Part shown: in pieces, positions 26,020 through 50,237 of the stretch
Numbering within the stretch: the stretch's first letter is position 1
Layout of the letters: each line of letters begins with the position of its first letter
Assembly (NCBI RefSeq): GCF_965638725.1
Contig: NC_134951.1
Span: 1,116,001-1,180,000, forward strand
From: Aptenodytes patagonicus
Lineage: Eukaryota > Chordata > Aves > Sphenisciformes > Spheniscidae
Direction of reading: 5' to 3'
Length of the DNA: 64,000 nt
Program-made: the position numbers and the translations under genes
Notes under the pieces: model-generated
What the model was told of the DNA's origin: nothing
Databases searched by the model: none
The model's input: the letters and a program-made list of their open reading frames with translations, nothing else

Positions 26020-26108
26020 ATAGAATCATTGAATCATAGAATCATTGAGGTTGGAAAAGACCTCTAAGATCATCAAGTCCAACCGTCGACCCAACACCAC
26101 CATGCCCA

Positions 26109-27029
26109 CTAAACCATGTCCCTAAGTGCCTCATCTACACGTCTTTTAAATACCTCCAGGGATGGGGACTCCACCCCTTCCCTGGGCAGCCTGGTCCAAT
26201 GTTTCACCACTCTTTCAGTAAAGACATTTTTCCTCACGTCCAATCTAAACCTCCCCTGGCACAACTTGAGGCCGTTTCCTCTCGTCCTATCCCTTGTTCC
26301 TTGGGAGAAGAGACCGACCCCCACCTCGCTACAACCTCCTTTCAGGTGGTTGTAGAGAGCGATGAGGTCTCCCCTCAGCCTCCTTTTCTCCAGGCTAAAC
26401 AGTCCCAGTTCCCTCAGCCGCTCCTCATCAGACTTGTGCTCCAGACCCCTCACCAGCCTCGTTGCCCTTCTCTGGACACGCTCCAGCACCTCGACGTCCT
26501 TCTTGGAGTGAGGGGCCCAAAACTGAACACAGTGTTTGAGGTGCGGCCTCACCAGTGCCGAGTACAGGGGCACGATCACTTCCCTCCTCCTGCTGGCCAC
26601 ACTAGTTCTGATACAGGCCAGGATGCCGTTGGCCTTCTTGGCCGCCTGGGCACACTGCCGGCTCATGTTCAGCCGGCTGTTGACCAACACCCCCAGGTCC
26701 TTTTCCGACAGGCAGCTTTCCAGCCACTCTTCCCCAAGCCTGCATGGGGTTGTTGTGGCCAAGTGCAGGACCCGGCACTTGGCCTTGTTGAACCTCATAC
26801 AGTTGGCCTGGGCCCATCGATCCAGCCTGTCCAGGTCCCTCTGCAGAGCCTTCCTACCCTCGAGCAGATCAACACTCCCACCCAACTTGGTGTCGTCTGC
26901 AAACTGACTGAGGGTGCACTCGATCCCCTCATCCAGATCATCGATATTGAACAAGACCGGCCCCATTACTGAGCCCTGGGGAACACCGCTCGTGACCGGC
27001 CGCCAACTGGATGTAACTCCATTCACCAC
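26109..27029 (-). pseudogene. CR1 ORF2, reverse-transcriptase C-terminal part
   Basis: 306-codon open stretch in transcript sense with [15 protein letters not shown], then the catalytic-type box [10 protein letters not shown] (F-A-D-D), then the thumb and tail typical of CR1 ([53 protein letters not shown]), ending EALRDMV. It is separated from the endonuclease part by frame changes between about 27,030 and 27,560. Confidence 0.88.
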
Positions 27030-27554
27030 AACTCTCTGGGCCCGGCCGTCCAGCCAGTTTTTGACCCAGCGCAGAGTACACCTGTCTAAGCCATGAGCAG
27101 CCAGTTTCTGCAGGAGAATGCTGTGGGAGACGGTGTCAAAGGCCTTGCTGAAGTCCAGGTAGACACATCCACAGCCTTTCCCTCATCCACTGAGTGATAG
27201 AAGGAAATCAGGTGAGTCAAGCAGGACCTGCCTTCACAAACCCATGCTGATTGGGCCTGATCACCTGGTTGTCCTGTACATGCTACATGATGGCACTCAA
27301 GATGAACCGCTCCATCATCTTCCCCGGCACCGAGGTCAGGCTGACAGGCCTGTCATTCCCTGGATCCTCCTTCCGGCCCTTCTTGTAGATGGGCGTCACA
27401 TTGGCAAGCCTCCAGTCGTCCGGGACCTCCCCCATTAACCAGGACTGCTGATAAATGATGGAGAGTGGCTTGGCGAGCTCCTCCGCCAGCTCCCTCAGCA
27501 TCTCGGGTGGATCCCATCCGGCCCCATAGACTTGTGAGCGTCCAGGTGGCGTAG

Positions 27555-28876
27555 CAGGTCATTGACTCTTCCTCTTGGATTACGGGGGGTTCATCCTGCT
27601 CGCCGTCCCCGTCTTCCAGCTCAGGGGGCTGAGTACCCTGAGGATAACTGATCTGCCTGTTAAAGACTGAGGCAAAGAAGGCATTGAGTACCTCAGCCTT
27701 TTCCTCATCCTCGGTGACAATGTTCCCCCCTGCATCCAATAAAGGATGGAGATTTTCCTTGGCTCTCTTCTTGCCATTAATATATTTGTAAAAACTTTTT
27801 TTGTTGTCTTTAACGACAGCGGCCAGATTGCGTTCTAGCTGGGCTTTTGCCTTTCTCATTTCTTCTCTGCACGACCTAACGAGATCCCTGTACTCTTCTT
27901 GAGTCGCCTGCCCCTTCTTCCACAAGCGGTAAACTCTCCTTTTTTTCCTGAGTCCCAGCAAGAGCTCCCCGTTCAGCCAGGCCGGTCGTCTTCCCCGCCC
28001 ATTCTTCTTACGGCGTACGGGGACAGCCTGCTCCTGCGCCTTTAAGACTTCCTTCTTGAAGAACGTCCAGCCTTCCTGGACCCCTTTGCCCTTCAGGACC
28101 GTCTCCCAAGGGACTCTCTCAACCAACGTCCTGAACAGGCCAAAGTCCGCCCTCCAGAAGTCCATGGTTGCGGTTTTGCTGCCCCCCCTCCTTACTTCAC
28201 CAAGAATGGAGAATTCTACCATTTCATGGTCGCTAAGCCCAAGACGGCCTCCGACCACCGCATCTCCCACCAGTCCTTCTCTGTTAGTAAACAGCAGGTC
28301 GAGCGAGGCACCTCCCCTGGTAGGCTCAGTTACCAGCTGCGTCAGGAAGTTGTCTTCCACACACTCCAGGAACCTCCTAGACTGCTTCCTCTCTGCCGTG
28401 TTGTATTTCCAGCAGACGTCCGGGAAGTTGAAGTCCCCCACGAGAACAAGGGCTAGCGATTGAGAGACTTCTGCCAGCCGCTTGTAGAACGCTTCATCCG
28501 CCCCTTCATCCTGGTTGGGTGGTCTATAACAGACTCCCAGCAGGATATCTGCCTCGTTGGCCTTCCCCCTCATCCTTACCCATAAACACTCGACCGTACC
28601 ATCATCACAATCGTTGAGCTCTAGACAATCGAAACACTCCCTAACATACAGGGCCACCCCACCGCCTCTCCTTCCTCGCCTGTCCCTTCTGAAGAGTCTA
28701 TAGCCATCCAGTGCAGCACTCCAATCGTGAGAGTCACCCCACCATGTTTCTGTGATGGCGACTAAGTCATATCTCTCCCGCTGCACAATGGCTTCCATCT
28801 CCTCCTGTTTGCCGCCCATGCTGCGTGCATTGGTGTAGATGCACTTGAGCTGGGCTATCGATTTCGCCCCCGGCAT
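27555..28876 (-). CDS. CR1 ORF2, endonuclease and linker part (open frame)
   Basis: A long open frame of the LINE, starting near 28,876 (MPGAKSIAQLKCIYTNARSM). Apurinic-endonuclease motifs appear in order: IYTNARS, ITETWW (catalytic Glu), LLGVCYRPPN, LVLVGDFNFPDVCW (GDFN), SLDLLFTN and LSDHEMVEFS (catalytic SDH). A basic linker with KKSFYKYINGKK follows, where reverse-transcriptase homology begins. Frame is lost near 27,555. This is an element gene, not a host gene; roughly 440 codons stay open, so the insertion is not ancient. Confidence 0.88.
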
Positions 28877-29007
28877 CGGCACGCCACCCCTAGGCTCATC
28901 TCTAGTGAGCCTGGTTTTATCCCCTTCCCCCTTCGAACCTAGTTTAAAGCCCTCTCAATGAGCCCTGCCAATTCATGAGCCATGATCCTTTTTCCCCTGT
29001 GAGACAG

Positions 29008-29920: not shown

Positions 29921-31699
29921 GGATGATGGGGAGGATTTGGGGCTCAGACCTGGTCTGCAGCCTCATCTCAGCCTCCGGGATGCTGGATGGAGACGGTGTT
30001 TTGGGAAGCAGAGGGTCAATAGCCCGTGTCGGTCCTGGGGCCAAAGGCTGGTTGCTTTAGTGATGTGAAAGCACAAAGCGCTGTCCACACGGCAGGGCGG
30101 GCAGCCGGCGGAGAGGGAGGGAGGTCAGAGAGGAGCCGCTGCGGTGGCCGTGAGGACAAGGAGAGCAGTGATGCTGTCCTGCCGCGGTGGCCTTCTGGGT
30201 GATATCCATCCCGCCGGAGAGCCCGAACCCCCCCTATGTCTGCCCATCCCCAGGGGAGATTAAAGGAGCGGCTGTAAAGATCAAATGAAGACCAAGGGGC
30301 TGGGAGACCGTATTTTACCCACGTGCTTTTCTTCAGCTCCGTGCATGATTCCCCATCCTGCACGAGCTCTTGGGGATGATGACCAATGGTTTTGGACATT
30401 GTGCCCGACGTCCCTGGCTTGTTCAAGGGACCTCGCTGACTTGAGCACAGCCAACGAGCAGCCCTCCCCACCCCTTCCCTCCCTGGCTCCGTCCCCTATA
30501 CCCGGGCTATAGGTCTGGCTGCCCTATACCCCTCCCCTACAGAGGCAGGAGGAGGCACCGAGCGTTTCTGTCCCCTCTGCGGGACCTGCTGTCTGCTCCC
30601 TTCCCCGCTCCTTGCTGCGGCCCCGAGCTCTCCTGCATCCGCCTCCCGCTTCGGGGTGTTGCGCAATTCCAGCTAAGTAACGGGGAGCTGGCCGACCTCC
30701 CCTGGGCCGGAGAAAAGGGTGACACGCGTTTGCCGGAAGGCTTCAAGAGCCCCCTCGTGATGTTAATGACACCCCTCCCCATTGATTGCTGACGGGGGAG
30801 ACGATGGTCTGCAGCCGTCGCCTTGGGGGCAGGCAAAGAGCAGTTTGCTCTCTGCTCTCCTGGGCTGCTGCTCCTTGCACAGGCTTTGGGCAGGTTCAAA
30901 GGCAATTTTATTTTTTCCTGCTGGCTTGTGCTTGGCCGGCTGCCACAGTTTTTCAGAAATCAGAGCTCTTCTTGGAGAGGGCTTGGGCAGCCTGTAGAAC
31001 TGAAACTGCTCCTCAGGCTCATGTGATTTCGACTAAAGAGCCTCATTTCTCTCTTCTTAGATCAGGAGTTTATCCTCCAAACCCCTCCCGAGGATGGAGG
31101 ATGCCAAGAAGTGCCGCTTTGGCAGGGCACCCTGCAGGAACCAGCCAGCTGGGTGCTCCCAGTGCTCTCGCAGCCCCTGGGATAGGTGCCTGTGGGGCTG
31201 GAGCATCTCCCGCAGGGCAGCAGGAGGGATGCAGCCTCTGGGACAGGCGCCTGTGGGGCTGGAGCATCTCCCGCGGGGCAACAGGAGGGATGCAGCCTCT
31301 GGGACAGGTGCCTGTGAGGCTGGAGCATCTCCCGCAGGGCAGGAGGAGGGATGCAGCGGATCACCAGCTGCCGCGTGGGCCCGACCCATGCTTGGCCAAG
31401 CCTGGAGTGAGAGGCAGCTTGCCCCGGGGCACCCAGCCAGAGCCACGCTCCCGCAGAGGCAGAGGGACCCCTCTCCGCTGCAGAGACCTCGTCCTGCGGG
31501 AGCTGAGCCCCCCGGGCTGCCCCAAGCGGCTGCGGTGCAAAACTGGCAGAAAACGCATGGAGTGGAGGGCACGTGGGCTGGTCGGGATGAGGATGAATAA
31601 ATTCTGCAAGGCTTTTGGAATGGCACATGCAAAGGGGGCTCTGAGGAGAGGGCACTGAGTAATGCAGGGATGGGGAAAGGAGGATTCGGGGTGGATTTG
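29921..31699. other. Spacer between CR1 copies, nothing recognised except a tandem repeat
   Basis: No exon, RNA gene or known transposon recognised. It contains the 61-bp tandem repeat at 31,170-31,355. Overlapping open frames on both strands around 30,780-31,740 are produced by that repeat and by GC content. Confidence 0.5.
31170..31355. repeat. 61-bp minisatellite, about 3 units
   Basis: Unit GTGCCTGTGGGGCTGGAGCA followed by TCTCCCGCAGGGCAGCAGG and AGGGATGCAGCCTCTGGGACAG, starting at 31,186, 31,247 and 31,308 (exactly 61 bp apart). Because 61 is not a multiple of three, the unit is read in all three frames and creates repetitive open frames that are not genes. Confidence 0.85.
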
Positions 31700-32780
31700 A
31701 TGGGTGGACTGTTTGGTGGATGAGGAATTGGCTGCATGGTCACATCCAGAGGGTAGTGGTCAACGGCTCAATGTCCAGATGGAGACCAGTGACGAGTGGT
31801 GTCCCTCAGGGGTCCGTATTGGGACCGGTGCTGTTTAATATCTTCATCAGTGACATAGACAGTGGGATCGAGGGCACCCTCAGCAAGTTTGCAGATGACA
31901 CCAAGCTGAGTGGTGCGGTCGACACGCCAGAGGGACGGGATGCCATCCAGAGGGACCTGGACAAGCTGGAGAAGTGGGCCCCTGTGAACCTCATGAAGTT
32001 CAACAAGGCCAAGTGCAAGGTCCTGCCCCTGGGTCGGGGCAACCCCCGGTATCAATCCAGGCTGGGGGATGAAGGGATGGAGAGCAGCCCTGCCCAGAAG
32101 GACTTGGGGGGACTGGTGGGTGAAAAGCTGGACATGAGCCAGCAATGTGCGCTCGCAGCCCAGAAGGACAATCGTACCCTGGGCTGCACCACCAGCAGCG
32201 TGGCCAGCAGGTCGAGGGAGGGGATTCTGCCCCTCTGCTCTGCTCTGGTGAGACCCCCCCTGCAGCACTGCCTCCAGCTCGGGGGTCCTCAGCACAGGAA
32301 AGACACGGACCTGTTGGAGCGGGTCCAGAGGAGGGACACGAGGATGACCAGAGGGCTGGAACACCTCTGCTATGGAGAAGGGCTGAGGGAGTTGGGGTTG
32401 TTCAGCCCAGAGAAGAGAAGGCTCCGGGGAGACCTTCTTGCAGCCTGTCAGTACTTAAAGGGGGCTTATAAAAAAGATGGGGACAGACTTTTTAGCAGGG
32501 CCTGTTGCGACAGGACAAGGGGGAATGGCTTTAAACTGGAAGAGGGGAGATTCAGACTAGACAGAAGGAAGACATTGTTTACGCTGAGGGTGGTGAGAGA
32601 CTGGCCCAGGTTGCCCAGAGAGGTGGTGGATGCCCCATCCCTGGAAACATTCCAGGTCAGGCTGGACGGGGCTCTGAGCAACCTGCTCTAGTTGAAGATG
32701 TCCCTGCCCACGGCAGGGGGGTTGGACTAGATGGCCTTTAGAGGTCCCTTCCAACCCAAACCATTCTGTGATTCGATGAT
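31700..32780 (+). mobile_element. CR1 LINE, 3' half, with a 323-codon open frame
   Basis: 5'-truncated CR1 on the plus strand. The frame 31,720-32,691 reads as reverse transcriptase: [32 protein letters not shown] (FADD box), [46 protein letters not shown], and it ends LDGALSNLL-stop, followed by a 3' UTR and the tail TTCTGTGATTCGATGAT. It belongs to a different CR1 subfamily from the 26-kb copy (MTRGLEH instead of LVRGLEH, and a different tail). The frame is open without a stop despite several departures from the usual residues. It is not a host gene. Confidence 0.9.
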
Positions 32781-35418: not shown

Positions 35419-36025
35419 TGTCCTGGTTTCAGCTGGGATAGAGTTAATTTCCTTCCTAGTAGCTGGCACAGTGCTGTGGTTTGGATTTAGGAGGAGAACA
35501 ATGTTGATAACACAGCGATGTTGTAGTTGTTGCTGAGCAGTGCTTACACTAGTCAAGGACTTTTCAGCTCCCCGTGCTCTACCGACTGAGCAGGCTGGGG
35601 GTGCACAAGAAGCTGGGAGGGGGCACAGCCAGGACAGCTGACCCAAACTGGCCAGAGGGACGTTCCATACCATGGGACGTCATGCTCAGTACATAAACTG
35701 GGGAAAGCTGGCCGGGGGGGGGCCGCTGCTCGGGGACTGGCTGGGCATCGGTCGGCGGGTGGTGAGTGGTTGTGTCACTTGTTTTTTTTTCCTTCCCTGG
35801 GTTTTTTGTTTCTCTCTCTCTCTCGTGTTGTTTCACTTTCCATTACAAATTATTATTATTATAATTATAATATTATTATTATTTCAATTATTAAACTGTT
35901 CTTATCTCAACCCACGAGTTTTCTCACTTTTGTTCTTCTGATTCTCTCCCCCATCCCACTGGGGGCGGGAGGGTGAGCGAGCGGCTGGGTGGTGCTTGGT
36001 TGCCAACTGGGGTTAAACCACGACA
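35419..36025 (+). mobile_element. Solo LTR, TGTCCTGGTTT family (ERVL-like), GVIN intron
   Basis: Starts TGTCCTGGTTTCAGCTGGGA and ends AAACCACGACA. The flanking 5-bp sequences are CCGCC and CTGCC, a target duplication differing at one CpG. It contains an (ATT)n stretch at about 35,844-35,885 and the GACGTCATGCTCAGTACATAAAC promoter-like block near 35,669-35,691. Five-base duplications suit ERVL-type elements. It is the same family as the copies at 38,242 and 58,073; the first two are close relatives. Solo LTR, no internal genes; moderate age. Confidence 0.85.
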
Positions 36026-38241: not shown

Positions 38242-38792
38242 TGTCCTGGTTTTGGCTGGGATAGAGTTAATTTCCTTCTTAGTAGCTGGCACAGTGCTGT
38301 GGTTTGGATTTAGGAGGAGAACAATGTTGATAACACACCGATGTTGTAGTTGTTGCTGAGCAGCGCTTACACTGGTCAAGGGCTTTTCAGCTCCCCGTGC
38401 TCTACCGACTGAGCAGGCTGGAGGTGCACAAGAAGCTGGGAGGGGGGGCACAGCCAGGACAGCTGACCCCAACTGGCCAGAGGGACATTCCATACCATGG
38501 GACGTCATGCTCAGTACAGAAACTGGGGGGAGTTGGCTGGGGGGGCCGCTGCTCGGGGACTGGCTGGGCATCGGTTGGCAGGTGGTGAGCAATTGCATCG
38601 TGCATCACTTGCTTTGTGTATTATTATTAGTATTATTTTATTTCAATTATTAAACTGTTCTTATCTCAACCCATGAGTTTTCTCACTTCTACTCTTCCAA
38701 TTCTCTCCCCCATCCCACCGGGGGTGTAGGGGGGGAGGAGTGAGTGAGCGGCTGGGTGGTGCTCAGTTGCCGACTGAGGTTAAACCATGACA
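38242..38792 (+). mobile_element. Solo LTR, TGTCCTGGTTT family (ERVL-like), next to the GVIN coding exon
   Basis: Starts TGTCCTGGTTTTGGCTGGGA and ends AAACCATGACA, with a perfect 5-bp duplication GTAGG on both sides (38,237-38,241 and 38,793-38,797). It is clearly the same family as 35,419-36,025, though shorter in its microsatellite part. It lies in the sense orientation, ending about 100 bases before the acceptor of the giant coding exon. The perfect duplication suggests a relatively recent insertion. Solo LTR without internal genes. Confidence 0.9.
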
Positions 38793-38897
38793 GTAGGAGG
38801 AATCCCCAGGGCCGGAGCTGCTGGAGAGCCCTCTTATAAGAGACTGGGGCCTCTTACAACATACCTTAAAGAAAGTCTGTTTGCTTCTTCCACAGCC

Positions 38898-40289
38898 ATG
38901 AGTTCACAAGAGGACATACTAGAGGATGATGAAAAGGCACATCTTGCTAAAAAACTACTGGCAGAAGCATGTGAGAAAGAAGGACTGGATGATGCATACT
39001 GGCTCCCCAAACTGTCGAAGATACTGGGAGTCAAGTCCAGAGAAGCCCTGAAACACCTGCAATATGAAGACTGCCTTAAGCTGGAGTGCGAAGTACGGTA
39101 CCCCTGGGAAACAAAGGCGCTCCAAAAACTCCTGGAACTAACAGACAACAAAGCAACTTTTGAGGAGTTGCAGAGGGAGCGCTTGGAGATGACAAAGCAG
39201 AGACAAGAAGCGGCCAAGCTAGCCCTGGAGGAGCTGAAAGAAATGCACAACAGCCACAGCCACAGCAAGGACGTTGTAAGACAGAAAGAGGAGGCTCTGT
39301 GGCAAGCCATGGAGATTCCCAAAGCGTACTGGGCACCGCCGGAGGAGTCATTGGTGGATGTGCTGGAGAGCATCCAGAAGCTGCTGGAGCTGCAGGAGTC
39401 GTCAGTGGGCAGGGGTGAGAACGTCTCCGACATGGAGGTCCTGAGGCGGGCATCGGGGGGACTGGCCCTGCAGGGCATTTACAGAACCAGCAGCCTTGCG
39501 GATATGCTGGCAAAGCGAGACCAGCTCATCAGGGTTCCCGACGGATTCAAGCTCGCTGGTCCAGAGCAAGGGTCACTGCTTGAGAGGAAGGAGTTCTCCT
39601 CCTCTGCAGCAGAAGCCACTTTCACCAAGTCCATGGAGCAGCTGGGGTTCAGCATGAACGTTTCTGCCAAAGCCAGCTTCTGGGGGTTTAATGTTGAAGT
39701 TGGTGTAGATTACAGCAGCTCCTCGCAGTCAGAGGACACCCACCAGTCCCACTCTGAGCAGAGCTACATTTGCATCACCAAGTACCAGTACATCCCTCTG
39801 GCCTCCTGCTACTTCCAAAAGCATCAGCTTCGCCTCTCAGATGTGGCCCTACGGGAGCTGCAAGACATCGAGCATCTTTTGAACATCACTCAGGAAGCAG
39901 ACAGGCCCAACATGCTGAAGAGCAGGTGTGCGAGCTTCTTCAGCAGGTTTAGGTCTCACGTAAACCAGGGTCCCCTCCATTTTGGGGGGATATTCTGGTG
40001 GAAGGCATCTATGGAAGGATTCAGAGCTGAGCAGTGGGAAGAGATGAAGCGACAAGCATCTGAAGCACTGAACTGCTACGTCGGGGCCAGCTACAGAGGC
40101 TTCAGTGTCAGCGTGGACGTTTCGAAATCCAGCTCACAGGCTTCTTTTCAGGGAAGAGACGGAAGTAGTGCCCACACAGGGGTTCAGCTCTACGTGACCA
40201 ACACAGGGGGCCCATCAGAGACAGATTCTCTTCCTCAGTGGAAACTGGGACTTGTAACTAATAACACAACCTGGTGTGTTATCGACTGA
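38898..40289 (+). CDS. GVIN1: GVIN N-terminal segment: helical module, coiled coil, MACPF-like region
   Basis: 463 codons from ATG to the in-frame TGA. Residues about 14-75 form the family's N-terminal helical module (AYWLPKLSKILGV, EALKHLQYEDCLKLE), which recurs in the separate exon at 48,170. Residues about 88-118 form a charged coiled coil (QRERLEMTKQRQEAAKLALE). From about residue 230 a beta-rich region has Ser-rich strands (GVDYSSSSQSE), then RSHVNQGPLHFGGIFWWKA (39,951-40,007), resembling the perforin/MACPF signature with a His followed by a Gly-Gly pair. It ends LVTNNTTWCVID-stop. On its own this could give a truncated protein without any GTPase domain. Confidence 0.8.
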   Translation: MSSQEDILEDDEKAHLAKKLLAEACEKEGLDDAYWLPKLSKILGVKSREALKHLQYEDCLKLECEVRYPWETKALQKLLELTDNKATFEELQRERLEMTKQRQEAAKLALEELKEMHNSHSHSKDVVRQKEEALWQAMEIPKAYWAPPEESLVDVLESIQKLLELQESSVGRGENVSDMEVLRRASGGLALQGIYRTSSLADMLAKRDQLIRVPDGFKLAGPEQGSLLERKEFSSSAAEATFTKSMEQLGFSMNVSAKASFWGFNVEVGVDYSSSSQSEDTHQSHSEQSYICITKYQYIPLASCYFQKHQLRLSDVALRELQDIEHLLNITQEADRPNMLKSRCASFFSRFRSHVNQGPLHFGGIFWWKASMEGFRAEQWEEMKRQASEALNCYVGASYRGFSVSVDVSKSSSQASFQGRDGSSAHTGVQLYVTNTGGPSETDSLPQWKLGLVTNNTTWCVID

Positions 40290-42992
40290 GGCTTTCAGCT
40301 GATCCCAGTGTGGGATATAATCCTGTTCAATCACAGCAGTGATTTTAAGTCCACCTATCAAATGAGCAGCAGCCTCAGGGCTGCATACGAAGCGCTAACA
40401 AATCACAGTGTCGGCACCATGTTCGGAGAGGAACTGGTCAGTGCAGTGGAAGAGGCCAGAGCTTTCGTGGAGTGTGTGAAGGCCTGGGAGATGACGGTGG
40501 ATGAAAGGAAACTGCTCACGCTGATAGATTTCAAACAGAATCTGCATGAAAAAACCAAAACCCATAGTGTCTGGATCAACGTATGCCTGTCGGACAAAGC
40601 ACTGCAGGAGTTCCTGGTGAATACTGTTCTGCTTTGCGAGAAGTCACCTCCAGAAAACACCACCTATATCAAGTCTCTGTTGAGTTGCCTCCTGGATCCT
40701 CATGTCTATTCTGTCAAGGACTTCCCCAGGTCTTCCGTCATTACGCAATGGTTCTTCCATACTGAGCACATGCTTCCCGAAACTCCCAGTGTTTCTGAGC
40801 TTGAAGATCTCACCAAGACACTGCTGCAAATGAAGGAATACATCCAGGAAGTCACCTATGCACCAGAAACCTCTGCATCTGCCATTCATGAAGCAAAGAT
40901 AAAAGCCACCTTGACTGCAAGCTTAGCTGTTTATTCCTTACTCCAGTTTCTCCAGGAAAGAGCACAGAAAGACATAGAACTGCTGGTGCTCTTAATTACA
41001 ACCAGCATGGGATACCAGGTGGAAAGCAGCACATTTCAGTACCTCCTTGGATGTCCAGAAATTAACTTCATGATAAATGAAATGCAAATGGGACATAAGG
41101 AGTATCTGAGTCTGAAGGAGCAAGATGTTTACAGAGCCCAGGCCTTCCTGCTGCTGACAGGTCTAACTGTAACACCCGAACATAAAGAGGTGTCCCCTGA
41201 ACAGAAGAAGGAGCGTTTAGTTTTCATGGAAGATCAAATGAAAAACTTATGGTCCACAGAGATAAAAACTCTCCTCGAAAAGCACAGTGCATTCAAAGAC
41301 TGGGAGATGCTGGAAAGTGACTTGCATTCCTTCACCAATGGGCGCTTGGATGACACATGTGACGATCTGAAGAAACAGAGTATTATCAAAGACATGGAAG
41401 ACGCTTTTCAAAGAAGAGAGCCTTCCAGTCAGTCCAAATCCAAATCAGACGGCAGCGAGTCCAAAGCAAATCAAGCCATTGCAAACCAAAAGTTCCTCCA
41501 CTTACTTAAGCGCCTTGGACTAGAAAGTCACTATCCAAGAAAAATGGGGACAGAAGATTTCCACATTGTATACAGGACATCTTTACATGACAGCCAGCCC
41601 AGCAAGGAAAACGAACTACCATTTTACTTCTTGCAAAAGCTATTAACTGTGGATTATCGGGTGAGGTACCTGACTTGCAAGGACGAGAGCAGCCCAGGGC
41701 TCGCACCCATGCCAAGAACCACAGAACAAGGGCATGAACCCTCGGATTCCTTTGATGACTTTTTCACTAATTTGGAGCAAGAAGCCCCTGAATCTGCAAC
41801 CAGGGAGAGTTGTGTGCACCCCATGGACCTCCAGATGGCAATTTTTCATTGCGCTGATGATTTCATGAGACAGTACATTTCAACAAAGCTTGCTTTCTGC
41901 CAATTTGCACTACCTCTCCTGGTACCAAACCCGTGCACTTCACAGATAGAGTTCCCACTCTGGTCCCTCAGCCAAATAAAAAAGAGCTGGAAAGGGGCTG
42001 AGAAGTCAGGAAAGCAGGCCAGAATTAACAGTTACAAAAACAAACTCATTTATCAGGCAGAGACACCCATTGTGTCCTTCATACGGATCGGCAGTTCTCC
42101 CTCCTCTTCCAAGTCTCAGATCCTGAATGCTCTGCTGAGCAAACAAAAGCATGACACTTTTTTCCACCGACATTGCAAAGGCAGCACCAAAGACTGTTTG
42201 CTGATGAAAGGCGTTGTGGAGATCTCCTGGTACTGTCCAAGGGGTAGTGACGATGACAACTTTGACTGCTGTGTTGCTTTCTGTAACCTGCATGGAGATG
42301 CAAGGGATCACGAAGAACAGCTACAGTTTTTACAAGAGATAGCTGCTGTGAATGTGGCTCTTATATCCAAGCCTGATCAGAGTGACAAGAAAGGGATGAA
42401 AATTTTACGTGACCTGTGGCAGTCGCAAAGGCCTTTGGTTTGTCTTTTCTCTGAAAAAGAGAACGTTGCAGCTGGCCGATCTAGCCAAAACATAAGAATA
42501 GGTATCAAGAACAGAAACGAAGCAGAATTAATGGGTGAGCTGACAAAAACAATCAGGGATCTCCTGGAAGGGTCTAACACGCTTTTCAGCCTTGACGCCT
42601 GCGTGGACAAAGCACGCAAGCACGGATTCTTAGTCGATGAAGATACAGATGCGTGTGTGACAGCCAAAGAAAAGGCAAAGGAGCTGGTGAAGCTTCTGAA
42701 GAAAGAGAAGTTGTCTGAGATCAAATCCCAGCTACTGCCTCTTCAAGGAAAACTGTGGTACATGTGGTGCAAAAAGGACAAAGAACTCACTCGCTTGCAG
42801 GAAAAGAGAAACAAGAGCATAGAGCATCATCGGAGCCAAATTGAATCAGAGAAGTCGGCAATAAGAAGAAAGCAAGTAGAGAAAGCATTCCCCCTCAATC
42901 AGCTGATGAAATCAGTCCTTGGCTTTCTCCAGTCACAGCCAGCAGATACCAAGAAATACTTCCTGCAGTGGATGAAGGTCTTTATGGGATGA
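40290..42992 (+). CDS. GVIN1: GVIN middle segment with a degenerate P-loop domain
   Basis: Same frame as the N-terminal segment, continuing directly after the TGA (GFQLIPVWDIILFNHSS). About 900 codons, mostly helical. At 42,090-42,116 lies GSSPSSSKS, a P-loop-like sequence in which the Gly before Lys is replaced by Ser. HDTFFHRHCKGS follows, a pattern also typical of URGCP and VLIG proteins, whose first GTPase-like domain is thought not to bind nucleotide normally. The end is a highly charged helical stretch (KELTRLQEKRNKSIEHHRSQ). The frame is lost just after LQWMKVFM at the GGG run. Confidence 0.8.
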   Translation, partial: GFQLIPVWDIILFNHSSDFKSTYQMSSSLRAAYEALTNHSVGTMFGEELVSAVEEARAFVECVKAWEMTVDERKLLTLIDFKQNLHEKTKTHSVWINVCLSDKALQEFLVNTVLLCEKSPPENTTYIKSLLSCLLDPHVYSVKDFPRSSVITQWFFHTEHMLPETPSVSELEDLTKTLLQMKEYIQEVTYAPETSASAIHEAKIKATLTASLAVYSLLQFLQERAQKDIELLVLLITTSMGYQVESSTFQYLLGCPEINFMINEMQMGHKEYLSLKEQDVYRAQAFLLLTGLTVTPEHKEVSPEQKKERLVFMEDQMKNLWSTEIKTLLEKHSAFKDWEMLESDLHSFTNGRLDDTCDDLKKQSIIKDMEDAFQRREPSSQSKSKSDGSESKANQAIANQKFLHLLKRLGLESHYPRKMGTEDFHIVYRTSLHDSQPSKENELPFYFLQKLLTVDYRVRYLTCKDESSPGLAPMPRTTEQGHEPSDSFDDFFTNLEQEAPESATRESCVHPMDLQMAIFHCADDFMRQYISTKLAFCQFALPLLVPNPCTSQIEFPLWSLSQIKKSWKGAEKSGKQARINSYKNKLIYQAETPIVSFIRIGSSPSSSKSQILNALLSKQKHDTFFHRHCKGSTKDCLLMKGVVEISWYCPRGSDDDNFDCCVAFCNLHGDARDHEEQLQFLQEIAAVNVALISKPDQSDKKGMKILRDLWQSQRPLVCLFSEKENVAAGRSSQNIRIGIKNRNEAELMGELTKTIRDLLEGSNTLFSLDACVDKARKHGFLVDEDTDACVTAKEKAKELVKLLKKEKLSEIKSQLLPLQGKLWYMWCKKDKELTRLQEKRNKSIEHHRSQIESEKSAIRRKQVEKAFPLNQLMKSVLGFLQSQPADTKKYFLQWMKVFMG

Positions 42993-45900
42993 CCTGTCCT
43001 CCGATCGCCTTGACAAACTGAAGAGACGGTATCACCAGTTATGGTCTCAAATCCTGGCAATAAAGACAAGCCATGTAAAAACCAATACGAAATCTCTGTT
43101 GCTGAGTAAGTTAGATGCCCTCTCCAATGAAATCAACGATTCATCCATTGGCCTTGAGCATATTTTGAGAGAGGTAGGGCAGATTTACGAAGCTCTGGAA
43201 TCAATGAACTCAAAGGATAATATTTTTGTCAAACTACCTGAAATTGCAGCTGATCTGATGGTTTCAGGGTATCCTGTTGAGCTGATGGATGGTGATGCTT
43301 CTTACGTACCATTACGATGGGTTGTAGCAATCTTTGACAGATTAATTGAGAAGCTAGGGGATAAACGAGTATTTGTTCTTTCAGTGCTTGGTATCCAGAG
43401 CACAGGGAAGTCAACCCTGTTGAATGCCATGTTTGGTCTTCAGTTTAATGTCAGTGCAGGGAGATGCACCCGGGGAGCGTTTATGCAGCTAATTAAAGTG
43501 GACGAGAAGCTGCAGCAGGATTTGGACTTTGATTACATGCTAGTTGTTGACACAGAGGGACTTCGTGCCATAGAGCTGGCCAATAAACAGTCCCTTAATC
43601 ATGACAACGAGCTGGCCACCTTTGTCATTGGCATCGGCAACATGACTCTGATCAATATTTTTGGAGAAAATCCTTCAGAAATGCAAGATGTCCTTCAGAT
43701 TGCTGTGCAGGCTTTTCTGAGGATGAAGCAAGTAAATCTTTCCCCAAGCTGCCTGTTTGTACACCAAAATGTGGGAGAAATAACTGCCAAGGAACAGAAC
43801 ATGGAAGGACAAAGACGTCTGCAGGAAAAGCTGGATGAAATGACCGTGACAGCCGCCCAGCAGGAATTCTGTGACGTCTCCCGCTTCAGCGACGTCATCC
43901 GCTTTGACGTGAACCCCCACATTCATTACTTTGCTCACCTGTGGGAAGGAAACCCCCCAATGGCACCACCCAATCCCACCTACAGCCAGAACGTCCAGGA
44001 ATTAAAGAGCAAAATTCTCCAAGCTGCCAAGAAGGAGTCGCAGGGCAGCATTTTGAGGCTCTCGAACTTGAAAGTTCATATCAGTGACCTCTGGAATGCT
44101 TTGCTGAATGAAAACTTCATTTTCAGCTTCAAGAATTCAGTGGAGATTGCTGCGTACAAGAAACTGGAAACCGCATTTAGTCAGTGGACCTGGCAGCTGA
44201 GGAGTCACATCTTAGACTTGCAAATGAAACTGGACAATAAAGTTCGGAATGGGGACTTGCAGAAGGTCACCACAGAACACCTTGAAAAACTAGTGCAAGA
44301 GACAAGTGACGCCATCATGAAAGACATGGAAAAGTATTTCAGTGAAGACAGAGACTGCGAGATACTGGTCCAGTGGAAAAGCAGCACGGAACTGAAGCTG
44401 AAAGAACTAAAAGAGTCTCTTCTTCTTGAAACTAGAAAGAAGTGTGAGAATCTTATTGAACTAAAGAAGAACCAGTGTAAACTGGATGAAAGGAAGTCAG
44501 AATATGAAAACAAGCTCCTGAAAAGTAGTAGACAGTTGGCTCTGTCTCTGAAAGGCCAAAGCCTAAGTGAAAGAGAACTGAGAGACAACTTTATTTCTCT
44601 CTGGGCAATCTGGATTGCTGAAGTCTCCTCTACTGCTCCCCCTCTGGAACAGGTTGATATCGATGTGGAAATAGAAGATGTCCTTCTAGATCACTTTAAG
44701 GAGCCTAACTTACATGAACGCATCAGGGCATTTCCCAAACAGAGAGTATTTTCTGCTGACTTGGAGAAACACGTTGCTAGGAAAAAACGTTGGGGCATCC
44801 TGCCTGTGAATTTTGATGATGCTGATGTGAGCAAAATACACCGCCTTACAGATAACATCATAGCGTGTGTGATGGCAAACATTGATAAGAAGGAAAAGGA
44901 GAAAAGGGATTACAGTCGAAGTTTTATTCATGAAATACTAAATGAAGTACAGGAAGGTATAAACTCTGTCTCTAGCAATCAAAAATACAGTTTTAATAAA
45001 GATTACAGAATAGATTTATCGCTGTATCTGTGCAGAATGGCAGCAGAAAGGTTTAAAGACATGCATATAGCATTCAGAAAAGCAAACGATCCAGCCATCT
45101 ACCTGGAGAGCAAGAGAGAAGATTTCTTTAAATGCTTCCAGATTTCCTGCCAAGGAGCCACTTCTATCACGACATTTGCTGTTTTCCTGTGTGACAAGAT
45201 TGCCCCAGCTCTTCGCCAGGCCGTCTATAAGAGGACAGCTCTTGCCATAGCTCAAGACATTAAGGGTAAAATCCCAGATTTCAATGGCAATAGATCCTCT
45301 CTGGAAGTCTGCATGCTGAGATACCTGGCACAGGAAGAAAATTTTGAGAATTTCAAGGAGTACCTTAATCGCCCAGGAGACTTTTTACGGAGTTACATTG
45401 AGACACGTGTTGAGACGTACTGTTTAGGTAAGAACAGGAGGCTGGAGAAGTTTTTAGGTGACTCCCTTACTCACTGCTATGAAAGCATCCAGTCAGCCGT
45501 TTTTGAATCAACCAACGTTGTCAAAGACAGAAAAGACAGAAATGACAAAATCTCTCTTTGGCTGGATGAATTTTGCAGCGCACTTGGAGAGGTGCTAAGC
45601 TTGCCCAGAACGGAACTGAAGGGCATTGAGCATCAGGAGATAACAGACATAGAGTTCCTGAATAATGCCATGACAGAAGCACTGACTCCCCTGAAAGATC
45701 ATCTCAAGGAAGAGTTTGCTAGTGCTGATATGAGCTTATTTGAAACACAGCCTCATACAATCCTGGCTGAACAGTTTGCAGGGTGCTGGAAGCAGTGTCC
45801 CTTTTGTGGGGCTGTTTGCACAAACATCATGCAGGATCACGATGGAGACCATCAGCTTCTCTTCCATCGTCCACAAGTTTTGACGGGATACAAGTGGCAT

Positions 45901-46200
45901 AAAACAGACAATCTGGTCATTGATATTTGTTCTAGTAGCGTTGCAAGTGACTGTTTATTCTGGATTGGTGAAGACACGTGGATCCCCTACAAGAGATACC
46001 GGGATGCAGGACCTCCTTATTCCACTTGGAACATTCCTCCTGATCCATCCATGCAAGCGTACTGGAAATGGTTTGTGTCTCATTTCAGGACAGAGCTAGA
46101 AAAACATTACAATGGGAAATTTCATGGCAAAGGAGAAATCCCTGCTTCGTGGCAGATAATTACAAAGCAGGAAGTACTTGACGAACTGGAGAGGCTTTAG
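42988..46200 (+). CDS. GVIN1: GVIN C-terminal segment: VLIG-type G domain and Cys/His tail
   Basis: Continues one base out of phase (DDLSSDRLDKLKRRYHQLWS) to the TAG at 46,198. G domain: P-loop GIQSTGKST (43,390-43,416), an Arg/Thr-rich switch (SAGRCTRGAFMQL), DTEG (43,549-43,560) and a downstream HQNV in the place of a guanine-specificity motif. These are VLIG/GBP-like features. A long alpha-helical region follows, then CPFCGAVC (from 45,796) with HD..H and HRPQ.L.G, the conserved Cys/His C-terminal block of the family, possibly metal-binding. No stop interrupts these 1,070 codons. Nothing in this segment looks decayed. Confidence 0.87.
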   Translation, partial: DDLSSDRLDKLKRRYHQLWSQILAIKTSHVKTNTKSLLLSKLDALSNEINDSSIGLEHILREVGQIYEALESMNSKDNIFVKLPEIAADLMVSGYPVELMDGDASYVPLRWVVAIFDRLIEKLGDKRVFVLSVLGIQSTGKSTLLNAMFGLQFNVSAGRCTRGAFMQLIKVDEKLQQDLDFDYMLVVDTEGLRAIELANKQSLNHDNELATFVIGIGNMTLINIFGENPSEMQDVLQIAVQAFLRMKQVNLSPSCLFVHQNVGEITAKEQNMEGQRRLQEKLDEMTVTAAQQEFCDVSRFSDVIRFDVNPHIHYFAHLWEGNPPMAPPNPTYSQNVQELKSKILQAAKKESQGSILRLSNLKVHISDLWNALLNENFIFSFKNSVEIAAYKKLETAFSQWTWQLRSHILDLQMKLDNKVRNGDLQKVTTEHLEKLVQETSDAIMKDMEKYFSEDRDCEILVQWKSSTELKLKELKESLLLETRKKCENLIELKKNQCKLDERKSEYENKLLKSSRQLALSLKGQSLSERELRDNFISLWAIWIAEVSSTAPPLEQVDIDVEIEDVLLDHFKEPNLHERIRAFPKQRVFSADLEKHVARKKRWGILPVNFDDADVSKIHRLTDNIIACVMANIDKKEKEKRDYSRSFIHEILNEVQEGINSVSSNQKYSFNKDYRIDLSLYLCRMAAERFKDMHIAFRKANDPAIYLESKREDFFKCFQISCQGATSITTFAVFLCDKIAPALRQAVYKRTALAIAQDIKGKIPDFNGNRSSLEVCMLRYLAQEENFENFKEYLNRPGDFLRSYIETRVETYCLGKNRRLEKFLGDSLTHCYESIQSAVFESTNVVKDRKDRNDKISLWLDEFCSALGEVLSLPRTELKGIEHQEITDIEFLNNAMTEALTPLKDHLKEEFASADMSLFETQPHTILAEQFAGCWKQCPFCGAVCTNIMQDHDGDHQLLFHRPQVLTGYKWHKTDNLVIDICSSSVASDCLFWIGEDTWIPYKRYRDAGPPYSTWNIPPDPSMQAYWKWFVSHFRTELEKHYNGKFHGKGEIPASWQIITKQEVLDELERL

Positions 46201-49680: not shown

Positions 49681-50237
49681 TAGAATCATAGAATCATTAA
49701 GGTTGGAAAAGACCTCTAAGATCATTGAGTCCAACCGTCGACCCAACACCACCATGTCCACTAAACCATGTCCCTCAGCGCCACATCTACACGTCTTTTA
49801 AATACCTCCAGGGATGGGGACTCATCCACTTCCCTGGGCAGCCTGGTCCAATGTTTCACCACTCTTTCAGTAAAGACATTTTTCCTCACATCCAATCTAA
49901 ACCTCCCCTGACGCAACTTGAGGCCGTTTCCCCTCGTCCTGTCGCTTGTTCCTTGGGAGAAGAGACCGACCCCCACCTCGCTACAACCTCCTTTCAGGTG
50001 GTTGTAGAGAGCGATGAGGTCTCCCCTCAGCCTCCTCTTCTCCAGGCTGAACAGTCCCAGTTCCCTCAGCCGCTCCTCATCAGACTTGTGCTCCAGACCC
50101 CTCACCAGCCTCGTTGCCCTTCTCTGGACACGCTCCAGCACCTCAACGTCCTTCTTGTAGTGAGGGGCCCAAAACTGAACACAGTATTCGAGGTGCGGCC
50201 TCACCAGGGCCGAGTACAGGGGCACGATCACTTCCTC
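49681..50237 (-). mobile_element. CR1 LINE, 5'-truncated young copy
   Basis: Starts on the plus strand with the tail TAGAATCATAGAATCATTAAGG and continues as the reverse complement of the CR1 3' UTR and the last about 165 codons of the reverse transcriptase ([46 protein letters not shown]-stop). Homology with the 26-kb copy stops abruptly at about 50,237 (GGGCACGATCACTTCC). The two are about 95 percent identical by eye. The truncation point abuts the CpG island of SELENOI. Confidence 0.93.

What the first reader, a model, noticed from the sequence alone, without database searches (positions are those of the whole stretch)
38898..46200. Nearly intact giant interferon-induced GTPase gene with only two lesions
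A single exon of about 2,430 codons carries every expected GVIN/VLIG feature, yet holds one in-frame TGA and one single-base frame change. Neutral decay would leave many more lesions across 7.3 kb. Either function was lost very recently, the null is polymorphic, or one or both breaks are sequence errors and this is a working immune GTPase.
Basis: partly seen in the sequence, partly recalled or inferred. Interest (0 to 1): 0.8.

Follow-up and report, generated by a model that had tools for sequence, protein, structure and literature searches.

The report
Recently broken bird giant-GTPase immune gene
A bird's apparently only copy of a giant interferon-induced immune gene has two breaks in an otherwise well-preserved coding exon, which looks like a very recent loss of a known gene rather than a new kind of gene.

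Summary
From the ATG at 38,898 to 46,200 runs one VLIG/GVIN coding exon of about 2,430 codons. It is cut by an in-frame TGA at 40,287-40,289 and a one-base frame change at about 42,986. The closest relative found (unnamed, 96%) and the best named ones, Gavia and Calonectris (91%), have full-length proteins. The TGA replaces an Arg present in 53 of 53 printed relatives, and the exon has no other indel of its own.

The window lineage is not evolving faster than its sister (48 versus 63 unique replacements). Under assumed mutation rates, two lesions fit about 0.4-2.4 Myr of decay. Sequence error is unlikely: 63 of 65 cadherin-type matches and two giant SACS-type exons in this assembly are open. 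The only other family traces found are two ancient relics.

Best reading: a very young, lineage-specific, possibly still segregating null of the sole VLIG gene found. Human GVIN1 works from a third ORF of 1,808 codons (PMC11974893). Here the frame change splits that part and the matching start Met is Thr, so such a rescue is unlikely. No reads, RNA or relatives' DNA were available.

The parts
38894..38895 (+). AG of a splice-acceptor-like tract just before the coding exon; suggests a non-coding 5' exon upstream
   Evidence: sequence; no transcript seen, so inferred; note that human GVIN1 is described as intronless
38898..40289 (+). Piece A: ATG plus 463 codons (N-terminal region), ending in the in-frame TGA
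40287..40289 (+). Lesion 1: in-frame TGA where 53 of 53 printed relatives (of 54 aligned) have Arg
40290..42992 (+). Piece B: 900 codons, middle region with the first large GTPase-like (URGCP) domain
40743..40745 (+). Thr codon where 52 of 54 aligned relatives have Met; this Met is the start of the short form in gecko P0241 and, by my translation of the printed cloning primer, in human GVIN1
41814..42686 (+). PF25496 URGCP-like domain (first LG domain)
   Evidence: E 1.5e-113, residues 509-799 of piece B
42984..42992 (+). Lesion 2: one-base frame change in a short G run between a conserved Met and Asp-Asp; runs at once into TGA
42976..46200 (+). Piece C: 1,074-codon frame (homologous from about 42988) with the second GTPase domain and the C-terminal region, natural stop TAG
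43051..43986 (+). PF25683 URGCP-like GTPase domain, the part after the frame change
   Evidence: E 5.5e-120, residues 26-337 of piece C
43390..43413 (+). P-loop GIQSTGKS, intact

Best explanation
This is a bird interferon-induced very large GTPase 1 (VLIG/GVIN) gene, the only near-intact family copy found in this genome. In this lineage, or at least in this individual's assembled haplotype, it has been knocked out very recently. One mutation made a stop at codon 464, probably a transition at a CpG, because the lost Arg is invariant in the relatives seen. A one-base length change in a short G run shifted the frame at about codon 1,364. Translation from the normal ATG would make a 463-residue N-terminal stub without either GTPase domain, and the mRNA would be a candidate for decay. 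The gene was under normal constraint for almost all of the time since the split from its closest sampled relative. Shown: both lesions in the assembly, full-length relatives, no acceleration, no second near-intact copy found, clean control exons. Inferred: loss of protein function, the timing, and whether the null is fixed or still segregating.
For: Three frames and both lesions. Full-length relatives. The Arg at lesion 1 is in 53 of 53 printed rows, there is no other window-unique indel, and a 4-residue deletion is shared with P0002. The window terminal branch (0.025) is shorter than P0002's (0.036). Unique replacements are 48 versus 63 (p 0.18, outgroup Gavia) and 45 versus 67 (p 0.047, outgroup Calonectris). 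Of 35 window-specific replacements 3 fall on columns invariant in the 51 background rows, where about 26% of neutral changes would fall: (P 0.011). Two lesions fit about 0.4-2.4 Myr, overall 95% range 0.05-8.6 Myr across the assumed rates. The only near-intact family copy among five matches at three places in a 1.35-Gb assembly of 618 contigs. Controls: SACS-type frames of 3,861 and 3,437 codons, a Xin-repeat frame of 2,576, and 63 of 65 Cadherin_2 matches in frames of at least 835 codons.
Against: No reads, no second individual, no RNA. The closest relative P0002 is unnamed (source code 'lgn', which I take to be the Logan assemblies), and species and split date are unknown. The mutation and indel rates are assumed. 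3 of 35 window-specific replacements at invariant columns against 6 of 209 in the three other lineages is nominally higher, though not significant (p 0.12). One assembly error cannot be excluded; one search gives a 4-12% chance of at least one in 7.3 kb under its assumptions. The family search scores only its best candidates (7 of 7 here), so the copy count is formally a lower bound.
Confidence: 0.74

Rival explanations
1. Sequence or assembly error: one or both breaks do not exist in the bird, and this is a working immune GTPase.
For: The protein shows no relaxation. Lesion 2 is a one-base change in a G run, the usual type of long-read error (recalled). No reads were available. Two of 65 Cadherin_2 matches lie in short frames, one with a TAG, and one small SACS-family match has a TAA inside; these may be natural.
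Against: No disruption in 63 long Cadherin_2 frames and three giant exons, about 177 kb counted conservatively: chance of two errors in 7.3 kb at most about 0.7%, of at least one 4-12%, on those counts. The stop looks like a CpG transition (inferred), not a typical error. If only one break is an error the gene is still interrupted.
Confidence: 0.13
2. Multi-ORF but working gene in the manner of human GVIN1: a downstream frame is translated into a shorter antimicrobial GTPase, or the two GTPase halves are made separately.
For: Human GVIN1 mRNA has three ORFs. The third (1,808 aa) restored the defence in knockout cells, and the gene was annotated as pseudogene GVINP1 (PMC11974893). Shorter predicted proteins of fish, frogs and reptiles are numerous, though that search could only return proteins of about 590-1,870 aa. 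C-half frames of 975-1,169 aa occur in database proteins of several species.
Against: In human the third ORF spans both LG domains; here lesion 2 splits that part into 900 and 1,074 codons. The start Met of the short form is Thr here. The first five ATGs after the TGA are in weak or adequate context and the first strong one is at 41,007, all behind a 463-codon ORF. No expression data.
Confidence: 0.08
3. Recoding: readthrough of the TGA and +1 frameshifting at the second site give some full-length protein.
For: The frame change runs straight into TGA-C, an arrangement that resembles antizyme-type +1 sites (recalled). The 100 nt after lesion 1 fold better than shuffles (z -2.63, 2 of 200 shuffles as good).
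Against: None of the 53 printed relatives has such sites. The stop context TGA-GGC is not the CTAG readthrough motif (recalled). The 100 nt after lesion 2 fold no better than shuffles (z -0.47). Two inefficient events in series would give very little protein.
Confidence: 0.02
4. Old pseudogene kept intact-looking by gene conversion from an intact copy.
For: Other birds (for example Anas acuta, Aythya, Passer domesticus) have several listed proteins each (isoforms included), so conversion is possible in the family.
Against: No donor found: the other two family places in this genome are fragments 22-54% identical in protein and broken.
Confidence: 0.02

Closest known systems
Bird interferon-induced very large GTPase 1-like (VLIG/GVIN), e.g. 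Gavia stellata P0003, Calonectris borealis P0004, unnamed P0002
   Same: Both URGCP-type domains, length 2,432-2,437 aa, 91-96% protein identity over residues 1-1360 and 89-93% over piece C
   Different: Those are uninterrupted; the window copy has a stop and a frame change
Human GVIN1 (annotated GVINP1)
   Same: Sole family member of its species, interrupted into three ORFs (PMC11974893)
   Different: Human third ORF of 1,808 aa keeps both LG domains together and works; here the LG domains fall into separate frames and the matching start Met is lost
Unitary pseudogenes of immune genes (general class, recalled)
   Same: Lineage-specific loss of a single-copy gene with intact relatives
   Different: Very few lesions, so unusually young; fixation not shown

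Membership tests
VLIG/GVIN giant GTPase family | URGCP-like domain PF25496 and GTPase domain PF25683 above Pfam cut-off | tested here: met
   379.5 bits (cut-off 27) and, in piece C, 401.2 bits (cut-off 55)
VLIG/GVIN giant GTPase family | Full-length relatives align end to end with the three pieces | tested here: met
VLIG/GVIN giant GTPase family | Coding region in one giant exon, here apparently behind a 5' intron | tested here: inconclusive
   single exon and acceptor-like AG at 38894-38895; no transcript; human GVIN1 is described as intronless
VLIG/GVIN giant GTPase family | Intact P-loop in the second LG domain | tested here: met
   GIQSTGKSTLLN in piece C
VLIG/GVIN giant GTPase family | Interferon induction and GTPase activity | not testable with these tools
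   needs RNA and protein
Unitary pseudogene | Disabling lesions in the sole copy found, with intact relatives elsewhere | tested here: met
Unitary pseudogene | Relaxed constraint along the lineage | tested here: not met
   no acceleration; expected if the loss is very young, so the claim is limited to 'young or segregating null'
Unitary pseudogene | Lesions confirmed in reads and fixed in the species | not testable with these tools
   one assembly only
Human-GVIN1-type working short form | One uninterrupted ORF of about 1,800 codons spanning both LG domains | tested here: not met
   split 900/1,074 at about 42,986
Human-GVIN1-type working short form | Start Met at the MQWI position | tested here: not met
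   Thr in the window, Met in 52 of 54 aligned relatives

The most novel reading that the evidence does not exclude
The interrupted bird gene is still used, as human GVIN1 is: after interferon its separate frames are translated, or a little full-length protein is made by recoding. The two GTPase halves would then act as separate polypeptides, and 'pseudogene' labels on VLIG genes across vertebrates would need review.
Probability: 0.07. Interest if true: 0.75.

Novelty: new member of a known kind. Interest (0 to 1): 0.36.

Why it matters
Human GVIN1 was reported in 2025 to coat cytosolic bacteria and stop their actin-based movement (PMC11974893). A bird caught in the act of losing its only VLIG copy would be a natural knockout. 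If the null still segregates, carriers and non-carriers within one species could be compared. It also warns that automatic labels, 'pseudogene' or 'low quality protein', can be poor guides in this family.

Tried and rejected
Structure of piece A: AlphaFold2 mean pLDDT 51.8, pTM 0.28, too poor for a fold search, so none was run. MACPF domain in the N-terminal region: precomputed Pfam lists PF01823 for P0098, P0114 and P0130, but my hmmscan at E up to 1 did not find it in any of four proteins, P0098 and P0130 among them; left as a lead. Search for another record with the same split: the middle piece (68 hits among 7,993 scored candidates, lengths limited to about 495-1,575 aa) gave no hit above 91% identity, and piece C (best 120 of 3,738 hits listed, lengths about 590-1,870 aa) none above 82%. 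This is neutral, since the species may simply not be in the database. PDB by sequence with piece C: only the dynamin-like Sey1, E 2.9e-4. Interferon-response elements: 8 GAAANNGAAA in the window against 2.4 expected, scattered; not used. Programmed recoding: folds; not supported. Gene conversion: no donor found. dN/dS: no relatives' DNA reachable. The DNA search of the whole genome for a second copy of the exon did not complete; I rely on the family search, which should list a near-identical copy. Paper searches: 25 of 160 listed; 16 of 16; 15 of 68; 12 of 17; 10 of 40; 5 of 8; among the rows listed I saw no title on VLIG loss in birds. Read: PMC11974893 passages and section 9; PMC12133148 whole text; the rest as search listings only.

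Full report
What is there. The stretch 38,898-46,200 is one giant coding exon of a VLIG/GVIN gene. The stop-to-stop listing gives three adjoining frames on the + strand: 38784-40289, 40290-42992 and 42976-46200. The ATG at 38,898 is preceded by a pyrimidine-rich tract ending in AG at 38,894-38,895, as expected of an intron end before the coding exon; no transcript was available to prove it, and human GVIN1 is described as intronless. Pfam finds the URGCP-like domain (PF25496) in the middle frame and the URGCP-like GTPase domain (PF25683) across the frame change, profile positions 1-66 before it and 76-396 after it. The P-loop GIQSTGKSTLLN and a DTEG motif are intact.

The lesions. I added the three pieces to an alignment of 54 proteins longer than 2,400 aa, taken from the first 61 hits; five of the 54 are unnamed and the rest are birds. 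The TGA at 40,287-40,289 stands where 53 of 53 printed rows have Arg. The frame change lies between a conserved Met and Asp-Asp at about 42,986. The window has one other gap, of four residues, shared with P0002 and P0029; it has no indel of its own.

Is the gene old or young as a pseudogene? In the tree the window row and P0002 (unnamed database protein, 96% identical over residues 1-1360, 93% over piece C) are sisters, with terminal branches of 0.025 and 0.036. Unique replacements are 48 in the window and 63 in P0002 with Gavia as outgroup (p 0.18), and 45 and 67 with Calonectris (p 0.047). The window is, if anything, slower. Of 35 replacements specific to the window, 3 hit columns invariant in 51 background rows; neutral hits would fall there in about 26% of cases (P 0.011), so most of this branch was under constraint. 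Against this, the three other lineages together have 6 such hits in 209, which is nominally lower (p 0.12). With equal base rates and a background dN/dS of 0.2-0.5 (assumed), at most about 3-13% of the branch can have been neutral with Gavia as outgroup, and none with Calonectris. By lesion count, the exon should gain 0.84-5.3 disabling changes per Myr for mutation rates of 1.5-4.6e-9 and indel shares of 5-15%; two lesions then mean about 0.4-2.4 Myr, with 95% limits from 0.05 to 8.6 Myr over all settings (rates assumed). Both routes say: young.

Are the lesions sequencing errors? The same assembly (1.352 Gb, 618 contigs, window at C3:1116001-1180000) was tested on long single exons. Two SACS-type exons are open for 3,861 and 3,437 codons; the five other matches of that family lie in frames of 70-504 codons, one with a TAA inside, probably small exons. 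A Xin-repeat exon is open for 2,576 codons, all 13 matches in it. Of 65 Cadherin_2 matches (the domain that opens protocadherin exons, recalled) 63 lie in frames of at least 835 codons; one lies in a frame of 237 codons and one of 95 codons with a TAG. Counting 780 codons per long Cadherin_2 frame plus the three giant exons this is about 177 kb; one event in that length predicts 0.04 and three events 0.12 errors in 7.3 kb, so at least one error has a chance of 4-12% and two errors 0.08-0.7%. An error at one site remains possible. In one search I looked at part of the SACS exon; the frame ran to the end of the fetched stretch.

Is there another copy? The family search of the whole assembly gives five matches at three places: this gene (two matches) and two places on C5. 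The C5 fragments match VLIG proteins at 22-54% identity in several frames with stops. They show what a truly old VLIG pseudogene looks like in this bird, and they are no plausible donor or backup. An alternative-haplotype contig should have appeared as a second strong match; none did. A direct DNA search was requested 15 times and never answered.

What happens to function? A protein from the normal ATG would stop after 463 residues and lack both large GTPase domains. The instructive comparison is human GVIN1. According to PMC11974893 (passages and section 9) its mRNA has three potential ORFs, the gene carries the pseudogene name GVINP1, and the third ORF of 1,808 aa, with two LG domains, restores restriction of actin tails in knockout cells. 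The cloning primer printed there begins, by my translation, Met-Gln-Trp-Ile. A gecko protein of 1,828 aa starts the same way, its residue 2 aligning with residue 616 of the merged bird row. So a stop at codon 464 alone might be survivable. Here, however, that Met is Thr, while 52 of 54 aligned relatives have Met, and the frame change splits the remaining part between the two LG domains. A human-type rescue is therefore unlikely, though not excluded. Recoding has no signal in the relatives, and only the stretch after lesion 1 folds better than shuffles.

Context. Many fish, amphibian and reptile relatives listed are about 1,550-1,850 aa long, but that search could not return proteins above about 1,870 aa, so it does not show that longer forms are absent there. 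Bird models that end early occur (Amazona 2,019, Caloenas 1,964, Heliangelus 2,108 aa), as do four labelled 'low quality protein' among the 120 rows (Oxyura, Mergus, Cyanocitta, Eudromia). Some ducks and passerines have several listed proteins each, Gavia and Calonectris one each, in the 120 rows shown of a database clustered at 90%. Loss in a single-copy lineage would remove the family from the cell.

Verdict. Observation confirmed; interpretation partly supported. Most likely a very young, lineage-specific null of the sole VLIG gene found, fixed or segregating. The thing is of a known kind; its interest lies in its youth and in the human parallel.

Noticed in passing
35419-36025 and 38242-38792: Two same-orientation LTR-like copies (94% identical over 350 bp, 85% over a further 175) about 2.2 kb apart; the second ends about 105 bp before the VLIG ATG, so a proviral remnant seems to sit in the presumed 5' intron (the LTR label is recalled). 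Roughly 15 Myr old if 2e-9 per site per year is assumed.
   Followed up: partly
40743-40745: Thr replaces a Met present in 52 of 54 aligned relatives; the same Met begins the short VLIG form in gecko and, by the printed primer, in human GVIN1.
   Followed up: yes
P0191, P0202, P0203, P0208, P0224, P0247, P0280, P0298: Database VLIG proteins of 975-1,169 aa from birds, a mouse, fishes and unnamed sources that align from bird residues 1272-1435, i.e. carry only the C-terminal GTPase half; a recurrent break or separate start between the two LG domains is worth a look.
   Followed up: partly
N-terminal region of VLIG, window 38898-40286: Precomputed Pfam lists the MACPF (perforin-like) domain PF01823 for P0098, P0114 and P0130, and UniRef names an Otolemur relative MACPF domain-containing; my own scan at E up to 1 found none in four proteins, two of these included. 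A perforin-like domain on a giant GTPase would be of interest.
   Followed up: partly
L006, L007 (C5:42.80 Mb and 44.11 Mb): Two ancient broken VLIG/URGCP-like fragments, 22-54% identical to VLIG proteins.
   Followed up: partly
35831-35840: GAAAGTGAAA (minus strand), an interferon-response-like core (recalled), in extra sequence of the upstream LTR-like copy; may be chance.
   Followed up: no
26109-28954 (-) and 31663-32691 (+): Reverse transcriptase and endonuclease frames of retroelements, plus a 553-bp repeat at 26031-26583 and 49683-50235 (96%).
   Followed up: no
31170-31357: Tandem repeat of a 61-bp unit, about 3 copies.
   Followed up: no
C12:21.7-22.5 Mb of G000: Large cluster of Cadherin_2 (protocadherin-type) exons, some with equal scores and frame lengths, as if recently duplicated.
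   Followed up: no
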